Positions 22,253 through 40,318 of a stretch of 64,000 nt of DNA are shown here, piece by piece. The DNA lies in NCBI RefSeq assembly GCF_022921055.1, contig NZ_CP095068.1, positions 73,785 to 137,784 on the forward strand, given 5' to 3'. Each line of letters opens with the position of its first letter. Within the stretch, counting starts at the first letter, position 1. A program made the position numbers and the translations under genes. The notes beneath the pieces are model-generated. The model ran no database searches. It was not told the DNA's origin and worked only from the letters and a program-made list of their open reading frames with translations. The DNA is from Hymenobacter volaticus. GTDB taxonomy: Bacteria; Bacteroidota; Bacteroidia; Cytophagales; Hymenobacteraceae.

Positions 22253-22850
22253 TCAGCGTTTATTTTGAGCAGCTAGTTGCTTGAGCGCCGCTTCCAAAAC
22301 AGGGTCGTGTCCGCTACGCACATCGCGCGCAGTTAGGTGCACCACTACGTGCGGCTGCACACCTACTCCAACAAATTTCTTACCGTCTGGATAGGTGCGC
22401 GCTTGCTGCAGATGCGAGCCTTGCTCCCGCCGGGCAAGCTGAAAGACAAGGCTTGTCCGGTGCTACCGCATGTCGGTTCCCCGATGATTAAGCCGCGCTT
22501 TATTGTCTCGAAGGCCACGGCGAAGTCCTCGGCGGCCGAAAATGAGCGCACTGGTATGCAGCACTACCGGGCGCGTGTAAGCGCTGTCGCCCTTGGGTAT
22601 TATAGGTTTATGGGGCTCCGAGTACCACTGGGGGCCTGTTCCCAAACGGGGTTGGTGTACTGCTGCGAGCCGGTGGGCTGCACGTACCATTCCTGCCAGG
22701 GCGTAAACTGGTTGTGCAACGGTCCGCTGCGCTTGCGCAACTTGATGTAGAGGCACCGTTCAAGACCAGTAGCACACGAGCCCTTAAAGTTTACTTGATA
22801 GCAGAAAAAAAGAGAACTATCTAGCTGGCAACTAACTAAGTGCAAAGCTA
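22253..22850 (-). pseudogene. S41 peptidase C-terminal remnant with several frameshifts
   Basis: Pieces of an S41 (C-terminal-processing/tricorn-type) serine protease spread over three frames. They are EWYVQPTGSQQYTNPVWEQA, then KPIIPKGDSAYTRPVVLHTS, then FSAAEDFAVAFETIKRGLII with GEPTCGSTGQALSFSLPGGS, then YPDGKKFVGVGVQPHVVVHL to a stop at 22253. SAAEDF carries the expected catalytic serine region of S41 enzymes. At least three frame changes and loss of the N-terminal two thirds show real decay, unlike the single-base breaks elsewhere in the window. Confidence 0.8.
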
Positions 22851-22962
22851 GAGTCCCCCTTTCCGCCTGGCCTTTGCCAACAGGATTCTAACTTTTCTCG
22901 AACGTATTTTCGCGGCGCGTTGAGTCGTAGCGCCTAATCACAGAGCGGCCTTGAGCACTAGA

Positions 22963-24231: not shown

Positions 24232-25455
24232 CTATTTGTCGCGCACTAGGCGTACGGGCAAGTGGGGCGGGTTGTAGCCCACCGGATACGCCCGGATGGC
24301 AGCGTAGGTGTCGCTGGGCAACTGGATGATCTGGAAGGCGAGCGGATTGTCGCTGGCGTCTTTTTCCGAGGTCCAAAGCAAACAGTTGGTGCCTTCGCCA
24401 TTGGGGCTGCCGTTGGTAACGCGCAGGTTGGCGGGCACGGCCGTGAAGCCCGAGCTATTGGTGGCGTAGCCGTCTTGCTTGAGCCAGCCCGTGGTGGCCA
24501 TCAACCGGCCCAGGCGGCGCTTGGAATCCAGGTCTTCGCCGTTGGTGGAGCCCCATTGATCCAGCGCTAATCCTTGCGAGGCCAAAAGTTGCTCGTAGTC
24601 GCGCCGGGTCGGGATGCGCCAGCCGGCGGGCACCGGAATGGCCGCCAGATCCACGAACTTCAGGAAGGCGCCATAATGGGGTTTGCTGTCGTCTTTGATG
24701 CCACCGTTGCCGGCGTAGTTAACGCTCATCCACTCCTGACTGCCAATGCTCACCGTCGGGTAATACAAGTTGCCCACCTGCACATAGGTGCCCGTGGTAG
24801 GTGGTTTGGTGTACAGCCCGCCGGGGTTGGTAGGGACGGAGCCGCCGCCCACTTTACGGTACTTCACCGAAATCAGGTTGGCGCCATCCACGCGCTTGGC
24901 CGTGAGGTAGTTGATTGAGGAAGTGAAGGTGGTGGCTTCCGGCCCGCGCAAAATGCTTGCGTACGTCAGCATGTCTTTCCGCTGGATAGGCGCCTCCTTA
25001 AAACCTGTGTACTTGTTGCTGAACACCCGCATAACCCCCGATTGAGCGTGGAAAGTGAGCGAGGAAGGGTTGCCGGCCTGGTACTCCAGCGTGCCCGTGA
25101 CTTTGTAGAGCCGTTGCTGCACCTCGTCGCTGCCATTAAATACTTCGGAGGTGTATTCCACGGCGTTCTTACCGTCTTTGGTGAACACCATCGTCCGGAA
25201 TTCTTTGAAGCCTTGCTCGCCCTGGAAGGTACCGGCCTCCCAGTTGGCGGTGAGCGGGCCAGTATTGCTGTCGGCAAACCAGGTGCCTACCAGCTCGTCG
25301 GGAATGGCTGTGGCGGGCGTGTTGATGACTTCCTCATCGCCGTTGTTGCCGCCGGTTGTAGTGGGCTCGGGGTCTTTCTTGTGGCAGCCGCTCAAAGAGT
25401 TGCCGAGCGTTAGCAGCAGCAAGGCGGTGAAAAGGAAAGGATGGGTGCGTTTCAT
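24232..25455 (-). CDS. Lipoprotein with FISUMP domain
   Basis: A 407-residue lipoprotein. The signal peptide ends in the lipobox LSGC (cysteine near residue 24), followed by HKKDPEPTTTGGNNGDEE, an acidic/charged linker that favours outer-membrane placement. The N-terminal domain (about 45-200) is beta-rich, with VGTWFADSNTG recalling lipocalin-like lipoproteins. The C-terminal half is a FISUMP (Fibrobacter succinogenes major paralogous) domain: VGNLYYPTVSIGSQEWMSVN, then PVPAGWRIPTRRDYEQLLAS, LLWTSEKDASDNPLAF and VRLVRDK. I chose the ATG at 25455, which begins a proper signal peptide, over the open codons up to 25500. The role is unknown; FISUMP domains are usually surface-exposed. Confidence 0.85.
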   Translation of the reverse strand: MKRTHPFLFTALLLLTLGNSLSGCHKKDPEPTTTGGNNGDEEVINTPATAIPDELVGTWFADSNTGPLTANWEAGTFQGEQGFKEFRTMVFTKDGKNAVEYTSEVFNGSDEVQQRLYKVTGTLEYQAGNPSSLTFHAQSGVMRVFSNKYTGFKEAPIQRKDMLTYASILRGPEATTFTSSINYLTAKRVDGANLISVKYRKVGGGSVPTNPGGLYTKPPTTGTYVQVGNLYYPTVSIGSQEWMSVNYAGNGGIKDDSKPHYGAFLKFVDLAAIPVPAGWRIPTRRDYEQLLASQGLALDQWGSTNGEDLDSKRRLGRLMATTGWLKQDGYATNSSGFTAVPANLRVTNGSPNGEGTNCLLWTSEKDASDNPLAFQIIQLPSDTYAAIRAYPVGYNPPHLPVRLVRDK

Positions 25456-25529
25456 AGCAAAAAATGTGGGCCAGCCGCTGCGTCGTGCTCTCGGCAGCAA
25501 GCCGCGCCCGTGACAGGTTAAAAAAGAAG

Positions 25530-26075
25530 TTAGTTTTCAACTACTGAGAATTCGCCGCTGAACGGCTTGCCGGTTTTCGCGCACATATCCTCGTCGTTCT
25601 GATCGAGCAGGGCGCCGGTGAAAGTGCCCTTTGCGACCTTGCCGGCCACGTATTCGGTCACGTTCACGGCCCCGTCGGTGGAGTAGTAGCCCGATTCGGT
25701 GGGGCACACCACGGCTTTGTAATTGGCGAATTTGGTGCCCTGAGTTTGATAATCCACCTGGCTGACCTGCGCGTAGGAATTCATGTCCTTGCGGTAAGGA
25801 AACGAGCCGGCCTTGGTGCCGTACACGAAGACCGTCAGATGGTTGTCACCCGAGGAGCCCGTGCATATCTGCCAGCCTTTGATGGAGCCCATCTGGGCTT
25901 CGCTGAAGCGAACATCGCGGTAGAGTGTGGTTTTGCCGTCGAACGTGACTTTGAGGTAGTTCTGGCTGGTAGCTGGGCGAGCGTCTTTGGATTCCGCTTT
26001 CGCTTCGGAATTGAATTGGCAAGCCGGTAGCGCGCTCACCAGCAAGCTGGCGGCAATCAGGGTCAGCAGGCGCAT
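25530..26075 (-). CDS. Small lipoprotein, function unknown
   Basis: A 181-residue lipoprotein. The signal peptide MRLLTLIAASLLVSALPACQ ends in the lipobox LPAC. The mature protein opens with a charged linker (FNSEAKAESKDARPATSQ) and then an all-beta domain, LKVTFDGKTTLYRDVRFSEA, ICTGSSGDNHLTVFVYG and VTEYVAGKVAKGTFTGALLD, ending in FSGEFSVVEN. This strand pattern resembles the DUF6252-type calycin-like lipoproteins of Bacteroidota, but I do not assign it. It is 74 nt upstream of the FISUMP lipoprotein on the same strand, so they may be co-expressed. Confidence 0.75.
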   Translation of the reverse strand: MRLLTLIAASLLVSALPACQFNSEAKAESKDARPATSQNYLKVTFDGKTTLYRDVRFSEAQMGSIKGWQICTGSSGDNHLTVFVYGTKAGSFPYRKDMNSYAQVSQVDYQTQGTKFANYKAVVCPTESGYYSTDGAVNVTEYVAGKVAKGTFTGALLDQNDEDMCAKTGKPFSGEFSVVEN

Positions 26076-26248: not shown

Positions 26249-26355
26249 AGTGGGCACTGGCCGGCTACCGATCTTGGCGTAGCACGGGCCGCAAGTGCCC
26301 ACTGGCTTAGCTGTTTTGCTGACACAAAGCTAGCGGGCAGGGTGCCCACTGGCTT
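26249..26355. repeat. Short repeats: AGTGCCCACT and its complement
   Basis: AGTGGGCACT (26249-26258) is the exact complement of AGTGCCCACT (26294-26303). A third copy, GGTGCCCACTGGCTTTT, begins at 26341. The first two can form a hairpin with a 35-nt loop; the last two are direct repeats 48 nt apart. The site lies between the lipoprotein promoter and the end of the AraC gene and may be part of a terminator. Confidence 0.4.
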
Positions 26356-26405
26356 TTGTCAGACGGACTTCTACTTTTCTCTGCCGGATTCTTACCGGGT
26401 CGCCT

Positions 26406-27400
26406 TTACTGGAAATTCACGAGGTCAGTGTAGTGCAGCTGCGGAGTGCGGCGCACTTGGGAGGGCGTGTGCCCAAATTCGCGGCGGAACGCCGTGGCAA
26501 AGTGCGCTGCGTTGGTGAAGCCCACCACTTCGGCCACTTCCTGCACGGGCTGGTCGGTGAGGGTGATGAGCTGATGAGCTACAGTAAGGCGGCGCTCGGC
26601 GATGTAGCCAAACACGGTGGTGCCGAACAATTCCTTGAACCCCTTCTTGAGCTTGAAGTCGTTGGTGCCGAACTGCCGGGCCAGTTCGAGCAAGCTCGGC
26701 GGCTCGGCGTAGTGGGTATCAAGAAAGTCGCGGACGGCGTACATAATGTCCCGGTCCCGCGACGTGGCGCGGGTGCGCAACTGCACGAGCTGGGCTTGTT
26801 GCTCGATAAACAAGTCCAGGAAGCGCGCTTCCAGAAACACTTTCTTGAGGGCCCCGCCGTAGGGGCAGGCGGCAATCTGCTGTACCAGGGCGCGTTGGGT
26901 GGGCGAAATGGCCGCGCCGGGGGCAGCAGCACAAACGGCTCGTGCCGGGCCAGACGCGTGTGGTGCAACGACAGCCACTCTTCGTTGCCGGTCACGAGCT
27001 GCGTGAAAAAGGCGGGCTCCACGTGTACTGTGCAGCAGTCGTAGTGTTGGCCCTGGAAGGTGTAGTAGTTGGTGGCCACTTCGTCGCCCACCATGTTTTG
27101 GTGCCCTTGTCCCATGTGCAAGGGGCGCGAGGCGCACGATTTCGAGCTGAGCTCCCCGTCCAGCTGGTAAAGCATGGCCGTCCAGGGGCGTTGTACGGCC
27201 AGCTCCAGCTGCAACGACTGATTGAGGTGGCCTTTGAGAACCGTCAGCTGAAAGCCCTCCAAGAAATAGTCGTTGAAGAGGAGTTTGCCTTTCGCACTCT
27301 GCCACGCCGATTCGGCGTGCAGCAAGCCGGCTTGCTGCGACACGGTGGTTTGGCAATGGTCGGTGAATTCGGCGGTGCGAAACTGGAAGAAGGGCTCCAT
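26406..27400 (-). pseudogene. AraC family transcriptional regulator, frameshifted
   Basis: A PchR-like AraC regulator split over two frames. The first frame (27400 to about 26920) gives the sensory part, SVS-type Bacteroidota N-terminus with FFQFRTAEFTDHCQTTVSQQ, FNDYFLEGFQLTVLKG and LSLHHTRLARHEPFVLLPP. The second frame supplies ISPTQRALVQQIAACPYGGA, then the HTH region, LLELARQFGTNDFKLKKGFK with LFGTTVFGYIAERRL, and VQEVAEVVGFTNAAHFATAF with RREFGHTPSQVR. Restoring one base in the G/C run at 26917-26923 gives about 331 residues, the normal PchR-like length. Its closest neighbours are the lipoproteins downstream and the two-component pair upstream; the target is unknown. Confidence 0.87.
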
Positions 27401-27604: not shown

Positions 27605-28258
27605 TCACACCAACTTTTCCCGCATGGCTTTCAAGATGGCTTCGGTTTTGGAATTCACTTGTAGCTTGTCGTAGATGCTGCGGATGTGGGAGCGCACGGT
27701 ATCGATGCTGATGCCAAGGTCGGCGCCGATCAGCTTATAGCTGTAGCCCGCTACCAAGCCCTTCACGATGTCCAACTCCCGGGTTGATAAGCGGTAGTCT
27801 TCGGCGGGGAGTTGCTGGGGCGCGGGCGCTTGAGCGTTTTGGAAATGCAGCAGCACCTTGCGGGCGATACTGGCCGTCATGGGGGAGCCGCCGCGGTGCA
27901 AGTCGAAAATGGCGGCCAGCAACTCGCTAGGCGAAGTGTGCTTAAGCAAATAGCCGCTGGCGCCGTTGCGAATAGCTTGAAACAGCTTGTCCTCGTCGTC
28001 GAACACCGTCAGCATCAGCACTTGAATGGTGGGCGACACAGCCTTGACTAGCGGCACGGCCTCGATGCCGCTGATGCCGGGCAAGTCGATATCCATGAGC
28101 ACCACGTCGGGGCGCAGGGTACGCACTTCCTCGGGCAGGTTGTGGCAGTTGCCGAACGCACCGAGTAGCTTCAGGCCCGGGGTAGCTTCCACTAGAAATG
28201 CTAGCCCTTCGCGCAGTTCGCGGTTGTCTTCGTAGTAAATAAGGTTGATGTCGGCCAT
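27605..28258 (-). CDS. LuxR/NarL-type response regulator
   Basis: A 217-residue two-component response regulator. The receiver domain (1-125) has the acidic pocket in YYEDNRELR, phosphoacceptor Asp56 in VLMDIDLPGISG, the Thr in MLTVFDDED and Lys in GYLLKHTSP. The C-terminal LuxR HTH (about 150-215) reads LSTRELDIVKGLVAGYSYKL then IGADLGISIDTVRSHIRSIY and DKLQVNSKTEAILKA. It follows the sensor kinase gene after only 6 nt on the same strand, so the two form a cognate pair. Its DNA target is not visible from sequence; the 69-bp elements starting at 31425 are a candidate because of proximity and because they have an activator-like position. Confidence 0.93.
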   Translation of the reverse strand: MADINLIYYEDNRELREGLAFLVEATPGLKLLGAFGNCHNLPEEVRTLRPDVVLMDIDLPGISGIEAVPLVKAVSPTIQVLMLTVFDDEDKLFQAIRNGASGYLLKHTSPSELLAAIFDLHRGGSPMTASIARKVLLHFQNAQAPAPQQLPAEDYRLSTRELDIVKGLVAGYSYKLIGADLGISIDTVRSHIRSIYDKLQVNSKTEAILKAMREKLV

Positions 28259-28264
28259 AAAACG

Positions 28265-31200
28265 TTAGGCAAGAAGGGCAGTAAGGGCCACGGACGTGCC
28301 CGCACCAGGGGCCGTGGTGAAAGTGATGCGGCCGCAGATGTCGCGGGCCCGGGTTTCTAGGTTGGTTAGGCCGTTGCCGGTGCGGGCAGTGGCCAAGTCG
28401 AAGCCGCGGCCATCGTCCTCGATCAGCAAGTGCAGTTGGCGGCCACTCACGCTGAGCTTCACTTGCAGCTGGGTGCAGTCGGCGTACTTAACGGCATTGT
28501 TGACGCTTTCCTTGAAAATTAAGTACAGGTTGCGGCGCTGCTCCACGCTCAGGCGCAAGGCCGGAAACGGTTCGGCCACAGTCATGGTGAAGCGGATACC
28601 TTTGGCCTCGGTTAGGCGCAAGCCGAATTCGCGCATGCGGGTCACCACGTCGGGCAAGCCATCGTGGTTGGTTTTGATGGTCCAGATGATGTCTTGCATC
28701 GACTCGGCTAACGTGGAAGCGTTGGTGCTGATGCGTTGCAGCAGCGACACGGTGGCCGGGTGGGCGTCGGCGAGCTGTACCTGGGCTACCTCGCTGAAAA
28801 TGCTAATGCTACTGAGCGTGGAGCCAATATCGTCGTGCAGGTCTTTGGCTATTCGGTCGCGCACGGCAGCTAGCTGCAGTTGCTGGTTTTGGCGGTAGCG
28901 GTAGATACCCCATAAGGCCACGGTGCCGGCCGCTAAGAGTAGCGCTTTAAACCAGAGCGTTTGGTAGTAGGCTGGCTGCACGCGCACCGCCAGCGTTTGC
29001 CCGGTTAGGTTCCAGACGCCGTCGTTGTTGGCCGCCCGGATGCGTAAGGTGTAGTTGCCGGGGGCCAAGTTGGTGTACGTGACGGTGCGGGCGTCGGTGC
29101 TCGTCCAGGCCGGGTCAAAGCCTTCCAAGCGGTAAGCATAGCGGTTTTTCTGGGCCTGACTGAAGTTGAGGGCCGCAAAAGCCACGGTCAGGGTTTGCTC
29201 GCCGGGCTGCAGCTCCACTTGGGCGCCCACCGGTCGAGAGTGGTTGTTGACGCGTATTTCCGTGACGGCCACCGGCGGGGGCACGGGGTTACGGCGCAGC
29301 TGGGTGGGCTGAAAATAGTTGAAGCCCGCGCGCGCCCCAATAAACAACTCGCCCTGACGGTTTGCGGTGAACGTCTGGTACATGCTGTTTACCAGCAGGC
29401 CGCTCGACCGCCCATAGTACCGAAATTTGTGCGTGGTTGGGTTTAGTTCGTGCAGCTGTTCGTCGGTGGCCAACCAGAGGTGGCCGCGCCGGTCTTCGGC
29501 CAGCCCGAAAGTGTAGTCGGCGCGCAAACCATTGGCGGTCGTGTAGGTGTGGCGTACCCGGCCGTTGGTATCGGCCTGCACCACCAACCCCAAACTCGAT
29601 AGCCATAGGTTGTCGTAGCGGTCGAGCAGGAACGTGCTTTGCAGCCGGTCGGATTGGTGCACGGTGGCCATGCTCGCTTGCGGGCGCACCCGCTGCACCC
29701 GCTTGCGGTCAGCCGATAAGCGAAACAACCCGAGGCTGGTTAGCACCCACAGCCGCCCCCGGCCATCTTCCTGCAGGCGATGCACTTGGCAGGCTGCACC
29801 CGCCTCCCCGGGCAAGGGATAAACCGTGGTTTGGTTTCTTTTAGAATCGTGTAGTAGCAAGCCGTGCTTGGCCGAGCCGAGCCACAGTTGCTGCTGGCGG
29901 TCCAGCAACAAGTGCTCCACCGTCACCTCGCCCGGCACGGCCGGTGTCTTGGTTGCCAGGCGAATCGGGCGCCGCTGCCAGCAACTGGTGGCAGGATCGT
30001 AAATACCTAGGCCCCCGTCGATGCCAACCCATACCCGGCCCTGCATGTCCTGCACTAGGTCGTACAAATAGCCGGGGAGCGGGTTCACCACGGTAGTAAG
30101 CTTTTGGTGTTGCCGCTCCCAGCGCATCAGCCCGGGCTGGTTGGTAAGCACCCAGTACAGCGAATCCTGCCGGCGGTCTTGGCGCACCACCCGCACATCT
30201 TCGAGGTAGCGCTTGGGGTCGGAACTGCGCACAAACTGACGCTTGAACTTGTTGGAAAGCGGGTCGATGACGGCCAGCCCGCGCGTGGTGCCCACCCACA
30301 GCATGCCCGTGCGCGCATCGGGAAGCAAGGCCAGCGTGATGCCGCCTGGGTAGCTGTGCACATCATCGGGGGAGTGGACCAGGTCGGTGTAGCGCCTACC
30401 CAAAGGGTTGTAGTAAGTAAGCCGGCCCGAAGTGCCAATCCAGCAGGCGGGTTGCCCCTGGGAGCCGCGCGTTTCCACCATTGTCTGCACATTGAAGATG
30501 CGCGCACCCTCGCCCACAAAGCGCTGTCGGGTGGCGTCGTAACGAAATACGCCTTGCTGCGCCACGGCATACCAGCGCTGCTGACGGCCCGGCACCAGCC
30601 GTTGAAAGTACTCGGGCGCGTTCGGATGCGCCAGGTCCTGGCCCTGCACGTACTGGTAGCGGCCGTTAATCGGGTCGAATAGGTAGATAGCTCCCTGGCT
30701 GATCAACCACACCTTCCCTCCAGCGGCCGGAAAGGGCAGCGGGCATTCGTTGGCAACAACGTAGGGCAGGGAGTAAGCTGTCCGGCGCAGGGTGCGCGGA
30801 TCAATCCGGTAGAGCCGGTCGATGGAAGCAAACCAGCCCTGGCCGGCGCTGTCAAACCCAACGGGGGATACGAAGTCGTTGTCGGCTAGGCGGTCGCGCA
30901 ACTGGGGCAGCGGCACCGTGAGGCCTTGTTCGCGCACGGGGTCGAAGCGGCACAGGCCGCGAATGGTGGCTATCCAGAGGTAGCCCAGAGGGTCGGGCGT
31001 GATGCCGTTGGTAAGTACGTGGTTGGCCGGTAAGCTAGCTGCTCTATCCGTGCGCTTAAACACTTTGAACTGCGCGCCATCGAAGCGGTTGAGGCCGTTG
31101 AGCGTGCCCACCCACAAGAAGCCCCGCTTGTCGTGCGCCAGGGCCGTTACCTCGTCCCGCGACAGGCCCTGCTCGGTGGTGAAGCGGCGAAAAGAGGTTT

Positions 31201-31306
31201 CCGACGTTTGGGCACCGGCCCACAGCGGCAGCAGCACCAGCAGCCAGCTAACGTAGCAAAAGAGGTTGTTCCAGGGGCGCACAAGGAGGTTTTGCGGGAG
31301 CAGCAA
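28265..31306 (-). CDS. Two-component sensor kinase with Reg_prop beta-propeller
   Basis: A 1013-residue membrane sensor. The signal peptide (about 1-32, ending WAGAQ) precedes two seven-bladed propeller halves built of Reg_prop repeats (FTTEQGLSRDEVTALAHDKR, FLWVGTLNGLNRFDG, YLWIATIRGLCRFDP). Next is a Y_Y_Y domain (YRLEGFDPAWTSTDARTVTY), one transmembrane helix (LLLAAGTVALWGIYRYR), a HisKA_3 region with the phosphoacceptor in AKDLHDDIGSTLSSISIFSE, and the HATPase domain (DDGRGFD, NGLTNLETRA). This is the HTCS-like architecture of Bacteroidota, but the response regulator is separate (downstream gene). Such sensors often detect oligosaccharides in the periplasm; here the ligand is unknown and no glycan enzyme is adjacent. 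Confidence 0.92.
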   Translation of the reverse strand: MLLPQNLLVRPWNNLFCYVSWLLVLLPLWAGAQTSETSFRRFTTEQGLSRDEVTALAHDKRGFLWVGTLNGLNRFDGAQFKVFKRTDRAASLPANHVLTNGITPDPLGYLWIATIRGLCRFDPVREQGLTVPLPQLRDRLADNDFVSPVGFDSAGQGWFASIDRLYRIDPRTLRRTAYSLPYVVANECPLPFPAAGGKVWLISQGAIYLFDPINGRYQYVQGQDLAHPNAPEYFQRLVPGRQQRWYAVAQQGVFRYDATRQRFVGEGARIFNVQTMVETRGSQGQPACWIGTSGRLTYYNPLGRRYTDLVHSPDDVHSYPGGITLALLPDARTGMLWVGTTRGLAVIDPLSNKFKRQFVRSSDPKRYLEDVRVVRQDRRQDSLYWVLTNQPGLMRWERQHQKLTTVVNPLPGYLYDLVQDMQGRVWVGIDGGLGIYDPATSCWQRRPIRLATKTPAVPGEVTVEHLLLDRQQQLWLGSAKHGLLLHDSKRNQTTVYPLPGEAGAACQVHRLQEDGRGRLWVLTSLGLFRLSADRKRVQRVRPQASMATVHQSDRLQSTFLLDRYDNLWLSSLGLVVQADTNGRVRHTYTTANGLRADYTFGLAEDRRGHLWLATDEQLHELNPTTHKFRYYGRSSGLLVNSMYQTFTANRQGELFIGARAGFNYFQPTQLRRNPVPPPVAVTEIRVNNHSRPVGAQVELQPGEQTLTVAFAALNFSQAQKNRYAYRLEGFDPAWTSTDARTVTYTNLAPGNYTLRIRAANNDGVWNLTGQTLAVRVQPAYYQTLWFKALLLAAGTVALWGIYRYRQNQQLQLAAVRDRIAKDLHDDIGSTLSSISIFSEVAQVQLADAHPATVSLLQRISTNASTLAESMQDIIWTIKTNHDGLPDVVTRMREFGLRLTEAKGIRFTMTVAEPFPALRLSVEQRRNLYLIFKESVNNAVKYADCTQLQVKLSVSGRQLHLLIEDDGRGFDLATARTGNGLTNLETRARDICGRITFTTAPGAGTSVALTALLA

Positions 31307-31424: not shown

Positions 31425-31493
31425 AAAAATCCGGCAGCGGCAAGTTGAAATCCGTTTCGAAAAAGCCAGCGGCAACCAGGGAAACTAGTTTTG
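31425..31493 (+). promoter_or_regulatory. 69-bp promoter element, copy A
   Basis: First of four copies of a 69-bp block. It contains ATCCGG (31429-31434), AAGTTGAAATCCGTTTCG ending at 31459, and a terminal -7 box TAGTTTTG (31486-31493). The spacing between TCCGTTTC and the -7 box is identical in all copies. It lies 118 bp upstream of the sensor kinase start and points away from it, toward the gene at 31533. See copies at 32166, 37865 and 38116. Confidence 0.7.
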
Positions 31494-31532
31494 AAGCACT
31501 CAGAACAGGCAGCGTTTGCGGCTACCTGCCAG

Positions 31533-32132
31533 GTGTTTTATTCACTTCAATCGCTAGTTGATGCCTCTCCTTCCGCTGCCTATGTATCCCTTTGCCGCCG
31601 GGCACTTGCCGGTCGACCCCGAGCAAGGGGAGCACCGGGTCCTGCATTCGGGATGGGCCGCTATTGCTACGTTCCCGGCCGGGCTTGCGAAAGCAAATTC
31701 TACGAGGCACCCGCCATCATAGGGCGGGCCGTGCTGGCGGCGCGCGCCCTGCGGCTCCATTTCCGGGCCCTACCCGAGGGCGTAAACCTAGTGCTCGACC
31801 GGGCGCAGCTCTTGCCGGGTTGGGTGGGCACGTATGCACTCCGCAACAGAGCCACTCCTGGAGCCCCTGTTCGGGGCATGCTCTGCTACCGCCTCGATGC
31901 CGAAGCCGGCTCAGCTACTACCCGGCTGGGGTTATGCGCCTGCGTATCGTCACTGACGGGCGGGCTCACCATTACGAGCTACGACCCACTGCGCCAGCAG
32001 CTAAGCGGCTACTACGAAGTACGTGCCCTCGCGCTGCGCGCCCTGGCCCGCACCGCTACCCAAGCCGGACCGCGCGGCACCCTTGTGCTGGCCGGCGACT
32101 TTGCGGCCCTGCACGTGCAGGGCTGTAGGTAG
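31533..32132 (+). CDS. Hypothetical protein, paralogue of the lipoprotein at 40387
   Basis: The open frame continues through 32132 and its C-terminal ~130 residues align with the lipoprotein at 40387-40976. Compare VGTYALRNRATPGAPVRGML with IGQYQLRDPTLPGAGVVKAS, GGLTITSYDPLRQQLSGYYE with GTLLISEYDPKHELISGSYH, and LAGDF with LEGSF. The N-terminus is uncertain. A GTG at 31533 fits the frame and the upstream promoter element; the first in-frame ATG is at 31653 (about 159 residues); and no clear signal peptide is present, so an upstream frameshift is possible. Domain function is unknown. It follows copy A of the 69-bp promoter element. Confidence 0.6.
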   Translation: MFYSLQSLVDASPSAAYVSLCRRALAGRPRARGAPGPAFGMGRYCYVPGRACESKFYEAPAIIGRAVLAARALRLHFRALPEGVNLVLDRAQLLPGWVGTYALRNRATPGAPVRGMLCYRLDAEAGSATTRLGLCACVSSLTGGLTITSYDPLRQQLSGYYEVRALALRALARTATQAGPRGTLVLAGDFAALHVQGCR

Positions 32133-32165
32133 TGGGCGGTGCTTAAACGCACCTACTGTTAAGAC

Positions 32166-32234
32166 GATAATCCGGGAAAGGAAAGTTGTAATCCGTTTCG
32201 CGAAAACCGCTGAAAAAGAGGCCCTCTAGCTTTG
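32166..32234 (+). promoter_or_regulatory. 69-bp promoter element, copy B
   Basis: Same architecture as copy A: ATCCGG near the start, TCCGTTTCG at 32192-32200 followed by CGAAA, and -7 box TAGCTTTG at 32227-32234. It is 97 nt upstream of the outer-membrane protein gene at 32331. Confidence 0.7.
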
Positions 32235-32330
32235 TGCCCATCAAAACAGCCCCTGAAAATTACGTGGCTGTTGGCCCATATAAGGCACTTCTTCAACCTC
32301 TTTTTCTTACCCCCTACTTCTTTTTCACTG

Positions 32331-32903
32331 ATGAAAAAACAACTCCTCACTGCCTGCCTACTCACGGGTCTTGCTACGGCAACTTCCGCTCAAACCACTG
32401 CCGTGAAAATCAATATTTTCAGTCCCTTAGTGAAGACCGGCTCGTTCTTCGTGGAGCACAAACTAGCCGACCAGCGAAGCGTGCAACTCGGGGCCCTATT
32501 TACCAGCTGGGATACCGACGGCACCGACATCAGCGGGTTTGCCCTTACGCCCGAGTACCGCCTGTATTTATCGGATAAAAAGCCCGCGCTGCAAGGCTTT
32601 TACTTGGGGCCCTTCCTGCGCTACCAAAATCTGAAACTAACCAGTGAGGCGCTAGATTACTCCGAGCAAAACGGCAACGTTTCCCAATCGGAGGGCAAAG
32701 CCACACTGAACACTCTGGGCGGCGGCGTGGTGGCCGGGTACCAGTTTATGTTCAAGCGGCGCTTCACACTCGACACCTTCCTCGGGCCGTCCTACAACGG
32801 CGGGAAAGTGAAAGTAACGGCCGGCGGCACGGACTCATTTGAAACCGATGCGTTCAGCGGCTTCGGGGTGCGCACCGGTGTCACGTTCGGCGTGGCATTC
32901 TAG
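32331..32903 (+). CDS. Outer-membrane beta-barrel protein, DUF3575-like
   Basis: A 190-residue secreted protein predicted to sit in the outer membrane. The signal peptide is MKKQLLTACLLTGLATATSA. The mature part alternates amphipathic strands: VKINIFSPLVKTGSFFVEHK, SVQLGALFTSWD, FALTPEYRLYLSD, GFYLGPFLRYQNLKL, LGGGVVAGYQFMFKRRFTLD and the terminal FGVRTGVTFGVAF, ending in phenylalanine as barrels do. The layout matches DUF3575-type Bacteroidota porin-like proteins of unknown cargo. I choose the ATG at 32331 because it begins the signal peptide; the frame is open upstream without it. It is controlled by promoter copy B. Confidence 0.85.
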   Translation: MKKQLLTACLLTGLATATSAQTTAVKINIFSPLVKTGSFFVEHKLADQRSVQLGALFTSWDTDGTDISGFALTPEYRLYLSDKKPALQGFYLGPFLRYQNLKLTSEALDYSEQNGNVSQSEGKATLNTLGGGVVAGYQFMFKRRFTLDTFLGPSYNGGKVKVTAGGTDSFETDAFSGFGVRTGVTFGVAF

Positions 32904-33013
32904 CACGCCAGTCACTACTAGGTGAGGGGCAGCGCTGTGCAACCTAATGCTACCGCATTTGAGGCTGGGCAGCGCTGCTTTTCTCTTAAGCTTCTTCGGC
33001 CAACTTTTTTGTC

Positions 33014-33625
33014 GTGATAAAACCTGCCTTCCTTTCCGCTGGCTTGCTGATCCTGCCACTGCTTACTTACGGTCAAGTACCGTCCCGGCCAGGAGCCGGG
33101 GCGGTTTACCGCAATTGGCCGGTGGTAGCCGGGGTGCAGTTCCACACGCTGGCCATGCCCTTTTCCGACCGAAAAAGCGCGTTTTCCAATCCTGGTTTGA
33201 GTGTCGGCACCGAGTTTCGCTACAACCGCCGGGCCACGCTGGTGCAGAGCTTGCCGCTGGGCTACTACCGCAACCGCTACGCCGGCAACGGCCTGTACGT
33301 GGCGCCGCAGCTGGTGTACCGCCCGCAGTTCGGGCCATTGTATGCCGAACTGCGGGCCGGCGCCGGGGTGCTGTATACCATGCAGCCGGGGCGTTCCTAC
33401 GAGCTTGAAGACAACACCTGGCAAACCCGCAACCATGGCGGCAAGCTCACGCTGATGCTGCCGGTGGGTTTGTCCTTGGGCTACAGTGGGCGGCAGGCCG
33501 CGCCCCGAATTTCTCCTTTCGTGAGTTATCAGGTGTTCGTGCTGCACGGCTACAATCCTGGTATTCCGGTCGTGCCCAACCTCTTGCTGCAAGCCGGCGT
33601 TCGGGCCCACCTTTTCCACCACTGA
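33014..33625 (+). CDS. Secreted beta-barrel-like protein
   Basis: A 203-residue exported protein read from a GTG at 33014. The signal peptide is IKPAFLSAGLLILPLLTYGQ. The remainder is strand-rich and aromatic, e.g. VVAGVQFHTLAMPF, SVGTEFRYNRRATLVQSLPL, GLYVAPQLVYRPQFGPLYAE, LTLMLPVGLSLGYSGR and VVPNLLLQAGVRAHLF, consistent with a small outer-membrane barrel. No family is recognised. Its stop codon is only 6 nt before the serine-hydrolase start, so the two are almost certainly co-translated. The gap of 110 nt from the previous gene may still allow read-through from promoter copy B. Confidence 0.75.
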   Translation: MIKPAFLSAGLLILPLLTYGQVPSRPGAGAVYRNWPVVAGVQFHTLAMPFSDRKSAFSNPGLSVGTEFRYNRRATLVQSLPLGYYRNRYAGNGLYVAPQLVYRPQFGPLYAELRAGAGVLYTMQPGRSYELEDNTWQTRNHGGKLTLMLPVGLSLGYSGRQAAPRISPFVSYQVFVLHGYNPGIPVVPNLLLQAGVRAHLFHH

Positions 33626-33631
33626 TTCGCT

Positions 33632-34800
33632 ATGAAAACCGTTTGTTTGGGCCTGTTGCTGGCCCTAGGCGCCTGTACGCCCGTCGATTTCAGCGGTCCG
33701 GCTGCTACCTGCACCGCCGAGGCCAGCATCAACCCTAGCTTTTCCAAGGCGGCCGGGCTCCGGCAGGTGCTGCAGCGCTACGCCGCCGCTGGCCTGCCAG
33801 GCTGCGTGGTGGCCGTGTACAGCCCGACGGAAGGCTACTGGGCCGATGCTGCCGGCTTTGCCCAAATCGAAACCCGCACGCCCATGCAGGTCTGCCACTT
33901 GCAGTACGGCCAAAGCGTGGCCAAAACCTATGCCGCCGCCGCGCTGCTGCTACTCCATGAAGAAGGCAAGGTGCAGCTCGACGCGCCCATCACCGAGTAC
34001 CTGCCGGGCACCCTTAGCCGCAAGTTGCCCGACGCGGACAAGATAACCGTGCGTATGCTACTCAACCACACCTCCGGTCTGCCCGATTACGCCAGCAACG
34101 CCAACTACCTGGCGTACTTGCTGCAGCACCCGCAGCACCGCTTCAGCAGCGCCGACTACCTCGACTACCTGGCCGGCACCAAGTTGGAATTCAAGCCCGG
34201 CAGTAAATTCAACTACTCCAATACCAACTACCTACTCGTCGCTCTGATTCTTGATGCCATCCACGGCAATCATGCGCAACTGATTCAGGAGCGTATTCTG
34301 GCCCCGTTGGGGCTACAACGCACATTTTATCACAACTCCGCTCAGTATTTGCAGCAGCCCGACGTGGTCAATAGCTATTTCGAGCGCTACGGCAACGGGC
34401 GGGTGGAAAACGTATCGCGGATGCAGCAGATCAACGTTGAAACGCTGTACGGTGATGACGGCATCGTGGCTGCGCCCCTGGATTACGTGAACTTTCTGCG
34501 GGCCCTGATGGAAGACCGGCTGCTCAAGCCCGCTTCCCGGCAGCTGATGATGAACTGGGTGAACGACCCGAAAACCGGGCAGCCCAAGTACGGTATGGGC
34601 CTGTACCACATCGAGCACCAGGGCCACGTGGCCTACGGACACGGCGGCGCGGGCCTCGGGCCGGCTGCGCCCTCTACTACCTGCCTGATAAGCAGCTGTA
34701 CTTTTTTCTCGGCGTGAACATGGGCACGCTCACGGAGGGCAAGCTGGTGAGCAAGGCCGGCGAGCTGCGCGACGCGGTGCTCGCCGAACTAGTAAAGTAA
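33632..34800 (+). pseudogene. Serine hydrolase, class C beta-lactamase-like, frameshifted at the end
   Basis: A periplasmic penicillin-binding-protein-like serine hydrolase. The N-terminus is a signal or lipoprotein peptide (VCLGLLLALGACTP, lipobox LGAC). The catalytic motifs are in order: SxxK in YGQSVAKTY, YxN in FNYSNTNYL, and the KTG-equivalent HGG in AYGHGGAGLG. The frame then fails. Adding one G at about 34660 restores GAGCALYYLPDKQLYFFLGV and runs to TAA at 34798-34800. The total, about 390 residues, is normal for the family. These enzymes cleave D-amino-acid peptides or esters; the true substrate is unknown. It is coupled to the barrel-like gene just upstream. Confidence 0.87.
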
Positions 34801-34874
34801 CCGCTCCGGGTAGCTGAGAATTTTGCGTTCTTGCTGAACCCTAAGCCCATTTGCTGCCCCCAAGGTGCCCGCCG

Positions 34875-35489
34875 ATGTACATTCCAAAAAACTACCAAAC
34901 CACTGACCGCGCCGAAATAGTGGCTTTTATGCAGCGCCACAGTTTTGCTGCCATCATCACCGCAAAAGACCAGCTGCCCGTTGCCACGCATTTGCCGTTC
35001 GTGGTGACGAGGCAAGACGACGATACAATTCGGTTGATTTCTCATTTTGCCCGGGCCAACCCGCAGTGGCAGCAGGTGGCAGCGTTTCCGGTGCTGGTGG
35101 TGTTCAGTGAGCCGCACGCCTACGTTTCGCCGAGCCATTACGACAGCGAGCAAAGCGTGCCCACCTGGAATTATTTCGCTGTGCACGCCTACGGGCAAGG
35201 CCGCCTACTAACCGAGCCCGCGCAAACCCTTGGCGTGCTGGAAGCCACCATTGCCACCTACGAAGCCAGCTACCAGCAGCAATGGGAGCAACTGCCCGCC
35301 GAGTTCAAGACGAACATGGCCCGCGGCATCGTGGCCTTCGAAATAACCGTAACCGAGCTGCAAGCGCAAAAGAAAATGAGCCAGAACAAATCGGCCGCCG
35401 AGCAGCAGCGCATCATCCACACGCTAACCGCCAGCAAGGACGGCGCGGCCAGGGAGCTAGCGCATTACATGCAGTTAAACCAGTTGTAA
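34875..35489 (+). CDS. PaiB-type FMN-binding regulator-like protein
   Basis: A 204-residue split-barrel flavoprotein of the PaiB family (FMN-binding negative transcriptional regulator). MYIPKNYQTTDRAEIVAFMQ and the following HSFAAIITAKDQLPVATHLP are the family opening; ISHFARANPQWQQV, VFSEPHAYVSPSHYD and VPTWNYFAVHAYGQ make the cofactor-binding core, and the tail NMARGIVAFEITVTELQAQK MSQNKS is highly conserved. Start: ATG at 34875, since MYIPxxY is the conserved first residue run. In Bacillus PaiB affects sporulation and degradative-enzyme genes; the role here is unknown. It ends at a strong terminator. Confidence 0.92.
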   Translation: MYIPKNYQTTDRAEIVAFMQRHSFAAIITAKDQLPVATHLPFVVTRQDDDTIRLISHFARANPQWQQVAAFPVLVVFSEPHAYVSPSHYDSEQSVPTWNYFAVHAYGQGRLLTEPAQTLGVLEATIATYEASYQQQWEQLPAEFKTNMARGIVAFEITVTELQAQKKMSQNKSAAEQQRIIHTLTASKDGAARELAHYMQLNQL

Positions 35490-35495
35490 AGCGCA

Positions 35496-35550
35496 ACAAA
35501 GCAGTGAGAGGCCGGTCAAAAACATCTTGACCGGCCTCTCACTGCTTTGT
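35496..35550. terminator. Bidirectional intrinsic terminator
   Basis: Perfect 24-bp arms, 35496-35519 and 35527-35550, around a 7-nt loop, starting 6 nt after the PaiB stop codon. It also faces the end of the minus-strand T9SS gene. Confidence 0.88.
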
Positions 35551-35668
35551 AGTCATTCGGTTGCTTGCCCTTTCATACGCGGGCATCCTTAGATACCACC
35601 TTGTTGCTTCGGGCACTGGTGGCGTTCAGGTTGGTGCGACACCATACGGCTAGCTAGATTGTGGCTAG

Positions 35669-37540
35669 CTAGGGTTTAAGCACTACCAAGCGGTGGGTTT
35701 GCGGCTTTTCGTGCGGGCTTTCCACTCGCAGCACGTACAGGCCGGCGGGCAGCGAAGTCGTGGCAAATCGCAACGTTGTACGGCCCGCGCGCACCCAGTC
35801 GTGCAGCAATTCCGCTACGGTTTGCCCGCGCGGGTCCAGCAAAGAAATACGGGTCCGGCCGCCGCGTTTCTGCTGAAATTCCACCACCACGTACTCGGTG
35901 GCCGGGTTCGGATACGCCGCTAGCGGCGGCCGCACCCCAGCCGGGTGGGTGGCGGCCACCACGCCCGGGTGGGCGAGCCGCGAAATATGGGGCGTCGCTC
36001 CCCGCCCCGCCAAGGCCAGTGGCAACCGGCACGCAGCCCTGGGCCCATACTTCGCCCGGGCGGTTGTAGCGCGGGCTTAGCCCGAGGTAGTCGCCCCAAA
36101 TAGCAATGTAATCATCACCGGTGTGCAGGTTGACGGGCGCCGACAGGTCGCCGGCATCATCAACGAACACGGCCGAGTACCCCACGTACTCGGTCGGTGC
36201 GGCGTGGGAGTACACGATAAGGGCACTGTTTTCGGTGGGCGTGCGGCCGCAGTAGGCAATGGCCGGAAACGCCGCCTCGCGGGCTTCTGGCAAAAACTGG
36301 GCTTGGGCGCTCGGAGTGGGGGCGGTGAGGTTGGTGATTTGGCCGTAGCAGATACCCGCCCGCGGCGGACCGGAGGGGTGCAGGGCGTTCAGCACGAAGT
36401 GAATTCGTTGGTTGTGCTGGAAGGCGCTCATCACGCGCGCGTCGTTGCGGCTCAGGGTCACGGTAGTGCCGCGCTGTCGGACATCGGGGGGCAGCGTGTA
36501 GGGGAGCATGCCCGCGCAGGCCCGCACCTCGAGGGCGGGCGCGGCGCTCAAATCAGCCCCTACTTGCACCAGCAGCAAGCGCTGGGAGTTTTGGGCACTC
36601 AGGGCCTCACTGGAAAGGAAATAGGCCGGTAGGGTGCTTAGCTGGGTGCTACCGCGCACCGGCGTCAGGTTGAAGACGGGCTGCCCGTTGTCGGTGATGC
36701 TGTGGTAGTAGCGCGCATCGGCACTTTGCAGCACCTGCCCGCAAGCAGCTTTTGCTTGTTGAGCTGCCAGACAACGGACTGCCGAAAGCCGGAATTGTTG
36801 GTGGAGCCGTCGGTGAAGGTGTTGCCGCTAATGAACAGCTCGTTTTGGGTCAGCAAGATGTTGGGGTAGTCCATCCAGGTGCCGTCGTTGAGGGGCGAGC
36901 CGCTGAGCTGGTAGCTGTGCCAAGCGCCCAGCGGGTCGGCGCTCACCGATACGGCCACGTGCACCAAGCTGGCCGCGGCCACGTTGCCAGATAGAAATAC
37001 CACCACAAACCGGTTTGCCTCGGGGTCGTAAAGCACGCGTGGGTCGAAGCCGCGCACCCCGGGGGTAGTGCTGAGGGCCGCCAGGTTTTGACTGCGCAGC
37101 AGGGTGCCGTCTTCGGCGTGCACGGCCAGGCGGTTGTTCATCACGCTAACCACCGTACCATCGTTGGCCACGGCCAAGTCGTCGTCGTTAGGGACACCAG
37201 GTAGCTCGTAGCCAAAGAAACGGCTGAGAACCTGCGGCGGGGTGGCAGTACGGGCACTTACTGTTGGAGGAGTGGGAAAGTTGGCGGCGCGTTGCAGGCG
37301 GGCCAAGCTGTCTTTAATAGCTACTAGCTTGGCTTGGGTGCCCGCTAGGCGCGGGGCCGCTACGGGCACAGTGCGTAAGGTTGGCTGCCAGTCTGGCGTT
37401 GCCGTTAGCATCACTTGCTTGGGAGGATCCACTGCCGGGTGCGCTACGGCGTAGGCGCCCTGCCCGGTTGCGGTGTGAGCTCCCAAGAGCAACAGACAAC
37501 CTACGTTGCGCCACTGGCTTAGTAACTTGTTAAAATTCAT
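35669..37540 (-). pseudogene. T9SS type A sorting domain protein with two frame breaks
   Basis: A secreted protein of about 620 residues in three pieces. N-terminal frame: signal peptide (LLLLGAHTATGQ), then PQVLSRFFGYELPGVPNDDD, FDPRVLYDPEANRFVVVFLS and DYPNILLTQNELFISGN. The middle frame takes over near 36740 (one base missing in CCC) with QSADARYYHSITDNGQPVFN, YFLSSEALSAQNSQRLLL and YIAIWGDYLGLSPRYN. Near 36000 the first frame returns (one extra base, or two missing) for the C-terminal T9SS domain: YPNPATEYVVVEFQQKRGGR, LPAGLYVLRVES. The product is likely exported through the Por secretion system and anchored or released at the surface. The main domain is not recognised. It is driven by promoter copy D, 325 nt upstream. 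Confidence 0.85.
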
Positions 37541-37864
37541 TGCCTTGCATGGCTTTTATCCTAGGATATAATACGGATTTCGATGGTTTGCTAGTGCTTT
37601 GTTGAAGGAGTGGGTGCCGGGCAGAGCACGGCCAGAACTGAAACTGTGCGTGGTAGAAAGCCGCAGTTCCGGGTGCTGGCTTTCACCTGCTTTCTGGTAC
37701 TCGGTTGGGCTCGGTCAGCCGCGTTGCGCGGTTGGTTGGGGCGGCCACTTAAGAGGGCCATTCCATCGAGGAAGGCATCAACAAAATGAGCGTTCATAAG
37801 GAGAAGAGGCGGCCGTTGTTACGCGGCTGCATTGTTCATAAGTAAACCACTGTCTCAGCTTCTA
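37541..37864 (-). other. Long leader between promoter copy D and the T9SS gene
   Basis: About 320 nt of likely 5' untranslated region. A minus-strand frame at 37591-37797 (68 codons, MNAHFVDAFLDG) is open but has no recognisable domain; it could be a leader peptide or chance. No hairpin or known riboswitch was identified. Confidence 0.35.
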
Positions 37865-37933
37865 CAAAGCTAAAACTGGTCGTGGTCGGCAACTTTCGTG
37901 AAACGGAGTTCCGCTTTCGTGACCCGGATTTTC
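37865..37933 (-). promoter_or_regulatory. 69-bp promoter element, copy D
   Basis: Minus-strand copy of the element. Read 5'-3' it begins GAAAATCCGGG, carries AAGCGGAACTCCGTTTCA at the same offset as the other copies, and ends with the -7 box TAGCTTTG (complement of 37865-37872). It points toward the T9SS gene. Confidence 0.68.
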
Positions 37934-38115
37934 CGCCGGGCACACCCCGGAACTGCCTCTCCGAGACAGACAATCTTGCTACCTGCTACGCAGTTGTGGG
38001 CGCCACCCAGCCAAAGACGAATACCGCTCAAATCAAGCGGAAACACCGATTTAATTCGCCGCGAAGCAGACCTGACGCCCCGAAACCAACGGCCTTAGTT
38101 CGGTAGGCCACTGCA

Positions 38116-38184
38116 AAAAATCCGGCAGCGGCAAGTGGAACTCCGTTTCGCGAAAGTTTGCCGCAAACTGGGCTCCTAGTTTTG
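38116..38184 (+). promoter_or_regulatory. 69-bp promoter element, copy C
   Basis: Contains ATCCGGCAGCGGCAAGT, identical to copy A over 17 bases, TCCGTTTCG at 38142-38150 followed by CGAAA, and the -7 box TAGTTTTG at 38177-38184. It is 198 nt upstream of the beta-helix lipoprotein gene and divergent from copy D, with 182 bp between the two elements. Confidence 0.7.
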
Positions 38185-38381: not shown

Positions 38382-40318
38382 ATGTCCTTTTACCCTTACC
38401 GTCTGCCCGTACTGATGGCTACCTTGTCGGCGCTGACCTTCGCTGCCTGCGACGACGACAACCCCGAAACAACGGCAACCCCCAAGCCGAAAGCCGCTTT
38501 CACCTACACGGCCGGCTCCTGCCAGGGTGGCTGCCCGGTGGCTATCCAGAACACGTCCCAACATGCCACTTCCTACACCTGGGACTTCGGCGACAGCAAA
38601 ACCGGCACCCAGGCGGACGCACAGTTCAATCACTCCTATGCCCAAGCGGGCGTGTACCGCGTAAAGCTCACGGCTACCGGCGCCGGCGGCACCGACACCA
38701 CCAGCCAGCGCATCACGGTGGGCAGCGGCTCGGGCTGCACGCGGCAGATTGTGCAAGTCAGCAGCAACATCACCACGGCCACCACCTGGGAATCGTGCAA
38801 CGTGTACGTGGTGGATGGCGACATAGGCGTGAGCAACGTGCTGACGTTGCAGCCCGGCACGGTCGTTAAATTCAAGAGCGGCAGTGAGTTGAGCTTGAAC
38901 GGCGCGGGCCGCCTCGAGGCCGCCGGTACGGCCGCCGCCCCCATCTTTTTCACTTCCATCAAAGACGACGCCCACGGCGGCGACACCAACGCCGACGCCG
39001 CGGCCACCACGCCCGCCCGCAAGGATTGGGAACACCTCAACCTGAACGGCAAAAACGGTTCGCGCCTCGAATATTGCCAGTTCTTGTACGCCGGTGGCGG
39101 CGGGTCCAACAGCTACGCACTGGGGCTGAACGGGGGCTCGGCTACCATCCGCAACTCTATTTTCGCCCACAATGGTGGTGGCGCCCCGAGCATGCAAGGC
39201 GCCCTGGATGCGGGGGAAGCCTCGGCGGCCATCGAGCTAAACAACAACACGTTCTTCGACAACGAGATGCCGCTGCGAATCAACAACCTGTTCAGTGTCG
39301 ACAACTCCAACACCTTCCAGAACCCGCAGAATGCCAACCAAAAAAACGACTACAACGGTATCTGGGTGAAAGACACCTCGGTTCGGTCGATAATGCTGAC
39401 CTGGGGCGAAACGGAAGTGCCCTTCGTGCTCGACAATACAGGTTGGGAAAGCCAGCTAACTCTCGGGCGGGCGTCATCTTGAAAATGCTGCCCAACGCGG
39501 CTATGCAGTTCAACAGCGGCGGCTACTTGGTGGCTCGCGGTACCAGCGCGCAGCCCGTGGTGTTCACTTCCTACAAAGATGACACCCACGGCGGCGACAC
39601 CAACCACGACGGCAACGCCACGACCCCGACCAAAAAAGATTGGCGCAACATCGTGGCTGGCAGCTCGGCCGACTCGGAATTCGAGTACTGCCAGTTTCTG
39701 TACGGTGGCAACGGCGGCAATACCATCAGCTTGTTTGGCGCCAAGGCGAGCATTACGCACTGCACGTTTGCGCACAACGGCCAAGACGATGGCATAACCG
39801 AAGCTTCCCTCGACGCCTCCCGTGCCAAGGCCGGGACCGTTATTCAGGAAAACACCTTCTACGACAACGTCCGGCCGCTGTCCATTGCCGCTAGCTTCGA
39901 CCTCGACAACTCCAACACCTTCCACGACCCCGCCAACGCCAGCCAGAAAAACCAGTACCAAGGCATCGTCACGTTCTGGGACATCAATGCCACCAAGGCG
40001 AGCGTGAACTGGGAAGAAACCGAAGTAGCCTACGTGAACACGGAAAATATTGACTTGGTGGACGGCAAGACGCTCCGGCTCGGCAACAACGTGACGCTGA
40101 AGTTTCTGCCCAACGTGCAAGTTTCGCTGCGTAGCAATGCCAACCAGCTGCAAAATGCCAACGGCGCCGGCGTAGCCTTCACTTCCTACAAAGACGACGC
40201 CCGCGGCGGTGATGCCAACGGCAATGGCGCGGCCAACAACCCGGCCACCAGTGACTGGAAAGGCGTGTACAGCGGCGGCTGGCTGAAGTGGACTAACATC
40301 TACTACGCTTCCAATTAA
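38382..40318 (+). pseudogene. Surface lipoprotein with PKD domain and beta-helix repeats, frameshifted
   Basis: About 645 residues. The signal peptide has lipobox FAAC followed by DDDNPE, an acidic stretch typical of Bacteroidota surface-lipoprotein export. A PKD domain follows (YTWDFGDSKTGTQADAQFNH, then AGVYRVKLTATG). The rest is a right-handed beta-helix with three repeats of the form FTSxKDDxxGGDxNxDG (codons near 38950, 39570 and 40185), each ending in DW plus a small residue. The DxNxDG run looks like a calcium-binding loop. The first frame ends at TLGRASS; adding one G at about 39468 (CTCGGG to CTCGGGG) restores GVILKMLPNAAMQFNSGGYL. Start: ATG at 38382, first of the signal peptide. 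Ligand unknown. Confidence 0.87.

What the first reader, a model, noticed from the sequence alone, without database searches (positions are those of the whole stretch)
31425..38184. Four-copy 69-bp promoter element defines a possible surface-protein regulon
Seen in sequence: blocks at 31425-31493, 32166-32234, 37865-37933 (minus) and 38116-38184 have exactly the same length. They share ATCCGG at offset 5, an AAGTnGnAnTCC block and invariant TCCGTTTC at offset 27, and end with a TAGnTTTG -7 box at offset 62. The region between differs in copies, so the match is not simple duplication. All four point to exported proteins: a YxLRxPGA protein, an outer-membrane barrel, a T9SS protein and a beta-helix lipoprotein. 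Established: TAnnTTTG is the Bacteroidota -7 box. Inference: the TCCGTTTC block at about -40 is an activator or alternative-sigma site that co-regulates an undescribed surface system.
Basis: partly seen in the sequence, partly recalled or inferred. Interest (0 to 1): 0.82.

Follow-up and report, generated by a model that had tools for sequence, protein, structure and literature searches.

The report
AraC-type operator controlling surface-protein genes
A repeated promoter element in a Hymenobacter genome is very probably the binding site of an AraC-family activator encoded beside it, which would switch on a set of mostly exported proteins together; this is a new example of a well-known kind of gene switch.

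Summary
The element is real. The window holds six copies (two more than reported), the genome nine. The operator is a 21-bp direct repeat of a half-site, roughly TCCG-N7-AAAG; its last AAAG sits about where a -33 box would lie, and a sigma-A -7 box follows at fixed distance. That is AraC/XylS operator geometry. An AraC-family regulator gene (26406-27400 minus; split by a frameshift here, intact in relatives) lies 17 bp from one copy. Among 120 genus genomes, the profile finds strong copies in exactly the eight with a close relative of this regulator. In 204 family genomes the bare operator occurs in 11 of 12 regulator genomes and 2 of 192 others. In a second genus it lies between the regulator gene and a GH15 glycoside-hydrolase gene. 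By eye, 29 of 41 first target genes are exported; the YxLRxPGA protein is not. Two of the nine copies are a segmental duplicate; the others share no flanks. An alternative sigma factor is not supported. Binding, activation, transcription starts and the signal are untested. It is an undescribed regulon (in the searches made) of a known kind.

The parts
31429..31493 (+). Element copy 1 (operator 31429-31467, -7 box 31486-31493), before the YxLRxPGA gene
32170..32234 (+). Element copy 2, before the DUF3575 outer-membrane-barrel-like gene
   Evidence: DUF3575
37865..37929 (-). Element copy 3, before a T9SS-sorted protein gene (with a small conserved ORF in the leader)
   Evidence: Por_Secre_tail in the intact G101 orthologue
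38120..38184 (+). Element copy 4, before the PKD / beta-helix-like lipoprotein gene
26325..26389 (-).
22843..22907 (-). Element copy 6, weaker; no convincing target close by (possible orphan)
   Evidence: matrix score 47.5; profile match at C8:96627-96689, E 2.9e-11, but this copy was in the profile's training set
26406..27400 (-). AraC-family regulator gene, the proposed activator; in two frames in this assembly
   Evidence: tblastn with the G101 orthologue: residues 1-191 at 78% and 161-331 at 96% in different frames; HTH_18 and HTH_AraC above cut-off in the orthologue
31563..32132 (+). YxLRxPGA protein gene (target 1); frame broken near its 5' end compared with C4 and G101 copies; no evident signal peptide
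32331..32903 (+). DUF3575 / outer-membrane-barrel-like protein, signal peptide by eye (target 2)
35669..37540 (-). T9SS-sorted protein (target 3), in three frame pieces here
38382..40318 (+). PKD / beta-helix-like lipoprotein (target 4), in two frame pieces here
25530..26075 (-). Lipoprotein with a sub-threshold DUF6252 match in its G101 orthologue (target 5)
24232..25500 (-). FISUMP-domain lipoprotein, second gene after copy 5

Best explanation
The element is an activator-dependent sigma-A promoter. Its upstream part (about -69 to -31 if transcription starts 5 nt after the -7 box) is a two-half-site operator for the AraC/XylS-family protein encoded beside copy 5 (and its paralogue on contig C4). 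A dimer would bind the two direct-repeat half-sites; the downstream subunit, whose AAAG lies at about -36 to -33 where a -33 box would be, would help RNA polymerase start, switching on a set of mostly exported proteins together. Shown by sequence: repeat, fixed spacing, conservation against diverged flanks, co-occurrence. Inferred: binding, dimer, activation rather than repression, and an unknown inducing signal.
For: Direct repeat: 55% identity between halves at lag 21, next best lag 36.5%, none of 5000 column permutations as high; G200 of a second genus has TCCGTTTCGCGAAAG twice at 21 bp. Spacing: in an operator-only search without the box, all 31 hits with up to 2 mismatches in 8 genomes carry a box at fixed distance, 29 TAnnTTTG at +18, 1 at +19, 1 CAACTTTG at +18 (read). 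Co-occurrence in 120 genus genomes: 33 element hits in the 8 genomes with a close regulator, and one 3-mismatch hit in each of 8 of the other 112, with 13 reversed-control hits over the 120. Profile: the same 8, plus one weak partial match in G038. Family, bare operator: 11 of 12 regulator genomes against 2 of 192 others. Place: beside the regulator gene in the window and G101, G106, G019, G015, G014 and in the second genus. Footprint: in window versus G101 the element is an island between diverged flanks. Regulator has HTH_18/HTH_AraC and matches SoxS, Rob, MarA and AraC structures.
Against: No binding or expression data. G198 has the operator (0 mismatches) but its best AraC relative is 29% identical; G093 has one operator hit without the regulator; G196, with a 48% relative, has none at 2 mismatches; G013 is missed at 2 mismatches although the profile finds an element (E 7e-10). 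Reversed control: 8 hits over 204 genomes, so single hits can be chance. The eight genomes are not independent, so the Fisher values overstate. 37 of the matches trained the profile. The window's own regulator gene is split. Ten of 46 operators lack an exact TAnnTTTG. AraC proteins can also repress.
Confidence: 0.85

Rival explanations
1. The operator belongs to the AraC-family protein, but the protein represses these promoters, or the C4 paralogue alone acts here.
For: AraC itself represses without its ligand (PMC4760080, passages); the window copy is split while the C4 copy (64% identical) is open.
Against: The operator ends upstream of the -7 box and takes the place of a -33 box, the usual place for activation; not tested.
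Confidence: 0.07
2. The block is the site of the NarL/LuxR-type response regulator (27605-28258 minus) paired with the propeller histidine kinase (28265-31306 minus).
For: Both genes lie between copies 5 and 1 here and in G101.
Against: No such pair is seen in the ORF lists around the regulator in G015, G014, G019, G106 and G006, where elements are present (read from N-termini, not searched with profiles). The 21-bp direct repeat fits AraC geometry.
Confidence: 0.03
3. Alternative (ECF) sigma factor promoter.
For: A conserved upstream block at a fixed distance from a downstream box.
Against: The downstream box is the ordinary sigma-A TAnnTTTG (PMC9723704 passages and section 15 part 1; PMC7366714 passages); the upstream block is a 39-bp two-fold direct repeat, far longer than a -35 box.
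Confidence: 0.03
4. Copies spread by recent duplication or as a mobile repeat, without regulatory meaning.
For: The C4 pair lies in a paralogous module of 31429-34717; downstream flanks 68 and 75% identical.
Against: In all other pairs the flanks are 13-42% identical; the element always stands with its box before genes of many families; it is conserved in other species.
Confidence: 0.02

Closest known systems
E. coli AraC at araI1-araI2 of araBAD
   Same: AraC-type DNA-binding domain; two direct-repeat half-sites just upstream of the promoter; in araBAD, binding at araI2 recruits RNA polymerase (PMC4760080, passages). The 21-bp period there is recalled, not from a call.
   Different: Different half-site sequence, Bacteroidota -7 box without a -33, and a dispersed set of exported-protein targets instead of sugar catabolism.
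PchR-type AraC regulators (pyochelin)
   Same: The middle region (CPYxGxLKKxFLEARxLDLF) resembles PchR-like proteins, from recall only.
   Different: No siderophore genes seen among the targets; membership not tested.
Flavobacterium psychrophilum sigma-A promoters and SM1-SM6 motif set
   Same: Same TAnnTTTG -7 box (PMC9723704, section 15 part 1).
   Different: No upstream AraC-type operator is described in the part read.

Membership tests
AraC/XylS family (regulator) | C-terminal double helix-turn-helix domain | tested here: met
   HTH_18 80.1 bits (cut-off 33.6) and HTH_AraC 35.7 (26.6) in the intact G101 orthologue; C4, G013 and G200 relatives likewise
AraC/XylS family (operator) | Two half-sites in direct repeat upstream of the promoter | tested here: met
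   21-bp repeat in 37 sites and in the second genus
AraC/XylS family (function) | Sequence-specific binding and transcriptional activation | not testable with these tools
   needs protein and transcription experiments
AraC/XylS family (function) | Ligand- or signal-responsive N-terminal domain | tested here: inconclusive
   no Pfam match outside the HTH region; structure model unreliable there (residues 59-163 below 50 pLDDT)
Bacteroidota sigma-A promoter | TAnnTTTG -7 box | tested here: met
   30 of 31 unbiased operator hits
Bacteroidota sigma-A promoter | TTTG at about -33 (described for B. fragilis, not found in F. johnsoniae; PMC7366714 passage) | tested here: not met
   AAAG stands there instead; not a defining feature in flavobacteria
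Alternative-sigma (ECF) promoter | -10 region distinct from sigma-A | tested here: not met
   box is TAnnTTTG
PchR subfamily of AraC | Siderophore-sensing N-terminal domain and PchR-box | not tested
   resemblance recalled only

The most novel reading that the evidence does not exclude
This regulator-operator pair is a portable surface-remodelling switch of the family. In the second genus it has a simple form: one operator between the regulator gene and a GH15/trehalase-like gene, near a trehalose-phosphate synthase/phosphatase gene. In Hymenobacter the regulator was duplicated and the operator was gained before many unrelated exported-protein families (T9SS proteins, PKD/beta-helix and FISUMP lipoproteins, outer-membrane barrels), so that one intracellular signal would change much of the outer coat at once.
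Probability: 0.35. Interest if true: 0.65.

Novelty: new member of a known kind. Interest (0 to 1): 0.5.

Why it matters
Hymenobacter genomes encode many surface proteins of unknown function whose control is not known to me. An operator with its likely activator makes a set of them testable together, gives a sequence rule for further members, and would be a clear case of AraC-type activation on a Bacteroidota sigma-A promoter without a -33 box. It also offers material for asking how one operator comes to stand before many unrelated genes. No description was found in the paper searches made (listings, open-licence papers only).

Tried and rejected
Alternative-sigma promoter: the box is standard sigma-A. 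Response regulator 27605-28258 as the cognate: not seen beside the regulator in five other element-bearing genomes. Recent duplication: only the C4 pair shares flanks. RNA element in the leaders: no Rfam match at gathering score in 20000-44000. Structure model of the regulator (mean pLDDT 54.9, five sequences): too poor in the N-terminal half to suggest a ligand, so no fold search was made. My first bare-operator pattern had one base too many between TCCG and AAAG; its counts are not used, and searches replaced it. The 11 genus genomes whose best AraC relative is only 36-46% identical are not counted as having this regulator; one of them (G055) has a single 3-mismatch element hit, the others none. 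At 3 mismatches, one search gave 15 further hits (7 reversed-control hits in the 8 genomes); five are one unrelated conserved sequence in G000, G013, G019, G101 and G106. The tree left out the window's own regulator (split frame), a partial second copy in G014 and the 47-48% relatives in G196, G197 and G202. One search collapsed operators with identical 39 bases. The signal-peptide rule scripted misses plain cases, so the tally of 41 was made by eye.
Full report
OBSERVATION. The four blocks are present as described. A weight matrix from 33 sites finds a sixth, weaker copy at 22843-22907 (minus). A sequence-only profile built from 37 sites finds nine in the genome; the ninth, C5:105248-105312 (E 3e-9), and G101:C12:25408 (E 2e-11) were not in its training set. 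The 60 bp on either side of the nine copies are 13-42% identical in all pairs, except downstream of the two C4 copies against their counterparts (68 and 75%). So C4 carries a segmental duplicate; the rest share no flanks.

ANATOMY. The conserved letters are ATCCGg.ag.ga.AAgt.g.AaTCCGTTTggC.AAAG, then about 20 weakly conserved bases, then TAGnTTTG. The first 39 positions carry 43.8 bits, the 18-base spacer 7.3, the box 12.3. The first 39 positions are a direct repeat with a 21-bp period: 55% letter identity between the halves at lag 21, 36.5% at the next best lag, none of 5000 column permutations as high. In the second genus, G200 has TCCGTTTCGCGAAAG twice and G199 nearly so. If the box lies at -12 to -5, as for F. 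psychrophilum (PMC9723704; passages and section 15 part 1), the operator spans about -69 to -31 and its last AAAG -36 to -33. A -33 TTTG is described for B. fragilis and was not found in F. johnsoniae (PMC7366714, passages).

SPACING. With only the operator sought, 31 hits with up to 2 mismatches fall in the 8 genomes examined: 29 have TAnnTTTG starting 18 bases after the 39-base operator, one at 19, one has CAACTTTG at 18 (read). Fifteen more hits have 3 mismatches, against 7 reversed-control hits in the same genomes. Over 46 distinct operators scored in the loci held, 34 have the box at +18, 2 at +19, and 10 have no exact box. The ten include those of the second genus, which by eye keep CAnnTTTG at 18 or 19.

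REGULATOR. Copy 5 begins 17 bp after a gene for an AraC-family protein (26406-27400, minus). Here it is in two frames: matches to residues 1-191 (78%) and 161-331 (96%) of the intact G101 orthologue. Whether that is a sequencing error or a real defect is open; the T9SS, beta-helix and beta-lactamase-like genes are split in the same way. The orthologue has HTH_18 and HTH_AraC above cut-off, and its DNA-binding part matches SoxS, Rob, MarA and AraC in the PDB. A second copy, 64% identical with an open frame, is on C4. The G101 protein is identical to one in Hymenobacter sp. YC55; other named relatives at 60-71% are in H. crusticola, Hymenobacter sp. ASUV-10, Solirubrum puertoriconensis and H. 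cavernae.

CO-OCCURRENCE. Of 120 genus genomes, 16 have an element hit with up to 3 mismatches. The eight with a close regulator hold 33 hits; eight others hold one 3-mismatch hit each; the reversed control gives 13 hits over the 120. Regulator relatives at E up to 1e-20 are in 19 of 120: eight whose best match is 70% identical or more, eleven at 46% or less. The full-length search at E up to 1e-40 gives the same eight in the genus. The profile at E up to 0.001 finds 9 of 120: those eight, and G038 with one partial match at 2e-4 (stricter filters, and the eight supplied the training sites). Across 204 family genomes the bare operator with up to 2 mismatches occurs in 13 (reversed control 8 hits): 11 of the 12 with a regulator of 58% identity or more, plus G198 and G093. 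G013 is the regulator genome missed at that cut-off; the profile finds an element there (E 7e-10). G196, with a 48% relative, has none. G198's operator has 0 mismatches and stands before a GH15 gene as in its sister genomes, but its best AraC relative is 29% identical. G093's hit is nearly the same sequence as a 3-mismatch hit in G196 and may be coding sequence. Fisher tests give 1.2e-12 (genus) and 1.9e-15 (family); shared descent makes both too small. Elements on other contigs or far from the regulator (G000 C5, G101 C12, G019 C70 and C122, G106 at 2.58 Mb) show that linkage alone does not explain the match.

FOOTPRINT. Between window and G101 the element stays as an island: at 38120 the operator is identical while the upstream flank is hardly alignable.

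TARGETS. Reading by eye the first same-strand gene after the 41 elements (matrix score above 20) in the loci held from the eight Hymenobacter genomes, 29 show a signal peptide or lipobox, 1 is uncertain and 11 do not. The 11 are five YxLRxPGA genes, the regulator gene itself in G015, a NUDIX-like, an isochorismatase-like, a HAD-like and a flavoprotein-like gene, and the orphan site at 22907. No signal-peptide program was at hand. Families above curated cut-off in the proteins tested are FISUMP, DUF3575, PKD, Por_Secre_tail and Isochorismatase; DUF6252, SBBP/delta-60 and S41 matches are below cut-off. The YxLRxPGA family has no Pfam match (two members).

EVOLUTION. In a tree of 15 regulators one split (94/95 support) separates G013, G019b, G106b and the second genus from the other Hymenobacter proteins (midpoint root). 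In G200 and G202 the operator lies between the regulator gene and a divergent gene that is GH15 with a trehalase-like N-terminus in G200; a two-domain trehalose-phosphate synthase/phosphatase gene is near in G198.

MECHANISM. Shown: repeat, spacing, co-occurrence, conservation. Inferred: an AraC-type dimer binds both halves and helps sigma-A polymerase start at promoters without a -33 box. Unknown: the signal; the structure model is unreliable in the N-terminal half.

NOVELTY. AraC-type activation is well known. This operator, regulator and regulon were not found described in the searches made (listings only). I file it as a new member of a known kind.

The odds for the best explanation and the novel case are those of the draft; the list of rivals was filled in.

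Noticed in passing
window 26406-27400, 31563-32132, 33632-34797, 35669-37540, 38382-40318: Five genes here are split into frame pieces that are intact in G101. Sequencing error or real decay was not decided.
   Followed up: partly
window 37591-37797 (minus): A 68-codon ORF (starting MNAHFVDAFLDGMALL) in the leader of the T9SS gene after copy 3 has an open counterpart in G101; a possible small protein of the regulon.
   Followed up: partly
window 22843-22907 (minus): The weak sixth copy lies by a DinB-like gene and a SusD-like fragment. A similar copy in G101 (L135:5409-5473) stands before a barrel-like and an S41-like gene, so the window copy may be an orphan left by rearrangement (by eye).
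   Followed up: no
L038/L039 (G000 contig C4): C4 carries a diverged copy of the module 31429-34717 with two elements and its own AraC-family regulator.
   Followed up: partly
L180:4427-4465 (G006 contig C28): A 3-mismatch operator-like site lies just upstream of a diverged (41% identical) AraC relative, hinting that related regulators may use related operators.
   Followed up: no
window leaders after copies 3, 4 and 5: Distances from the -7 box to the first likely start codon are about 200-330 nt for several targets, long against medians of 24-32 nt reported for two Bacteroidota (PMC9723704, section 15). No Rfam match.
   Followed up: partly
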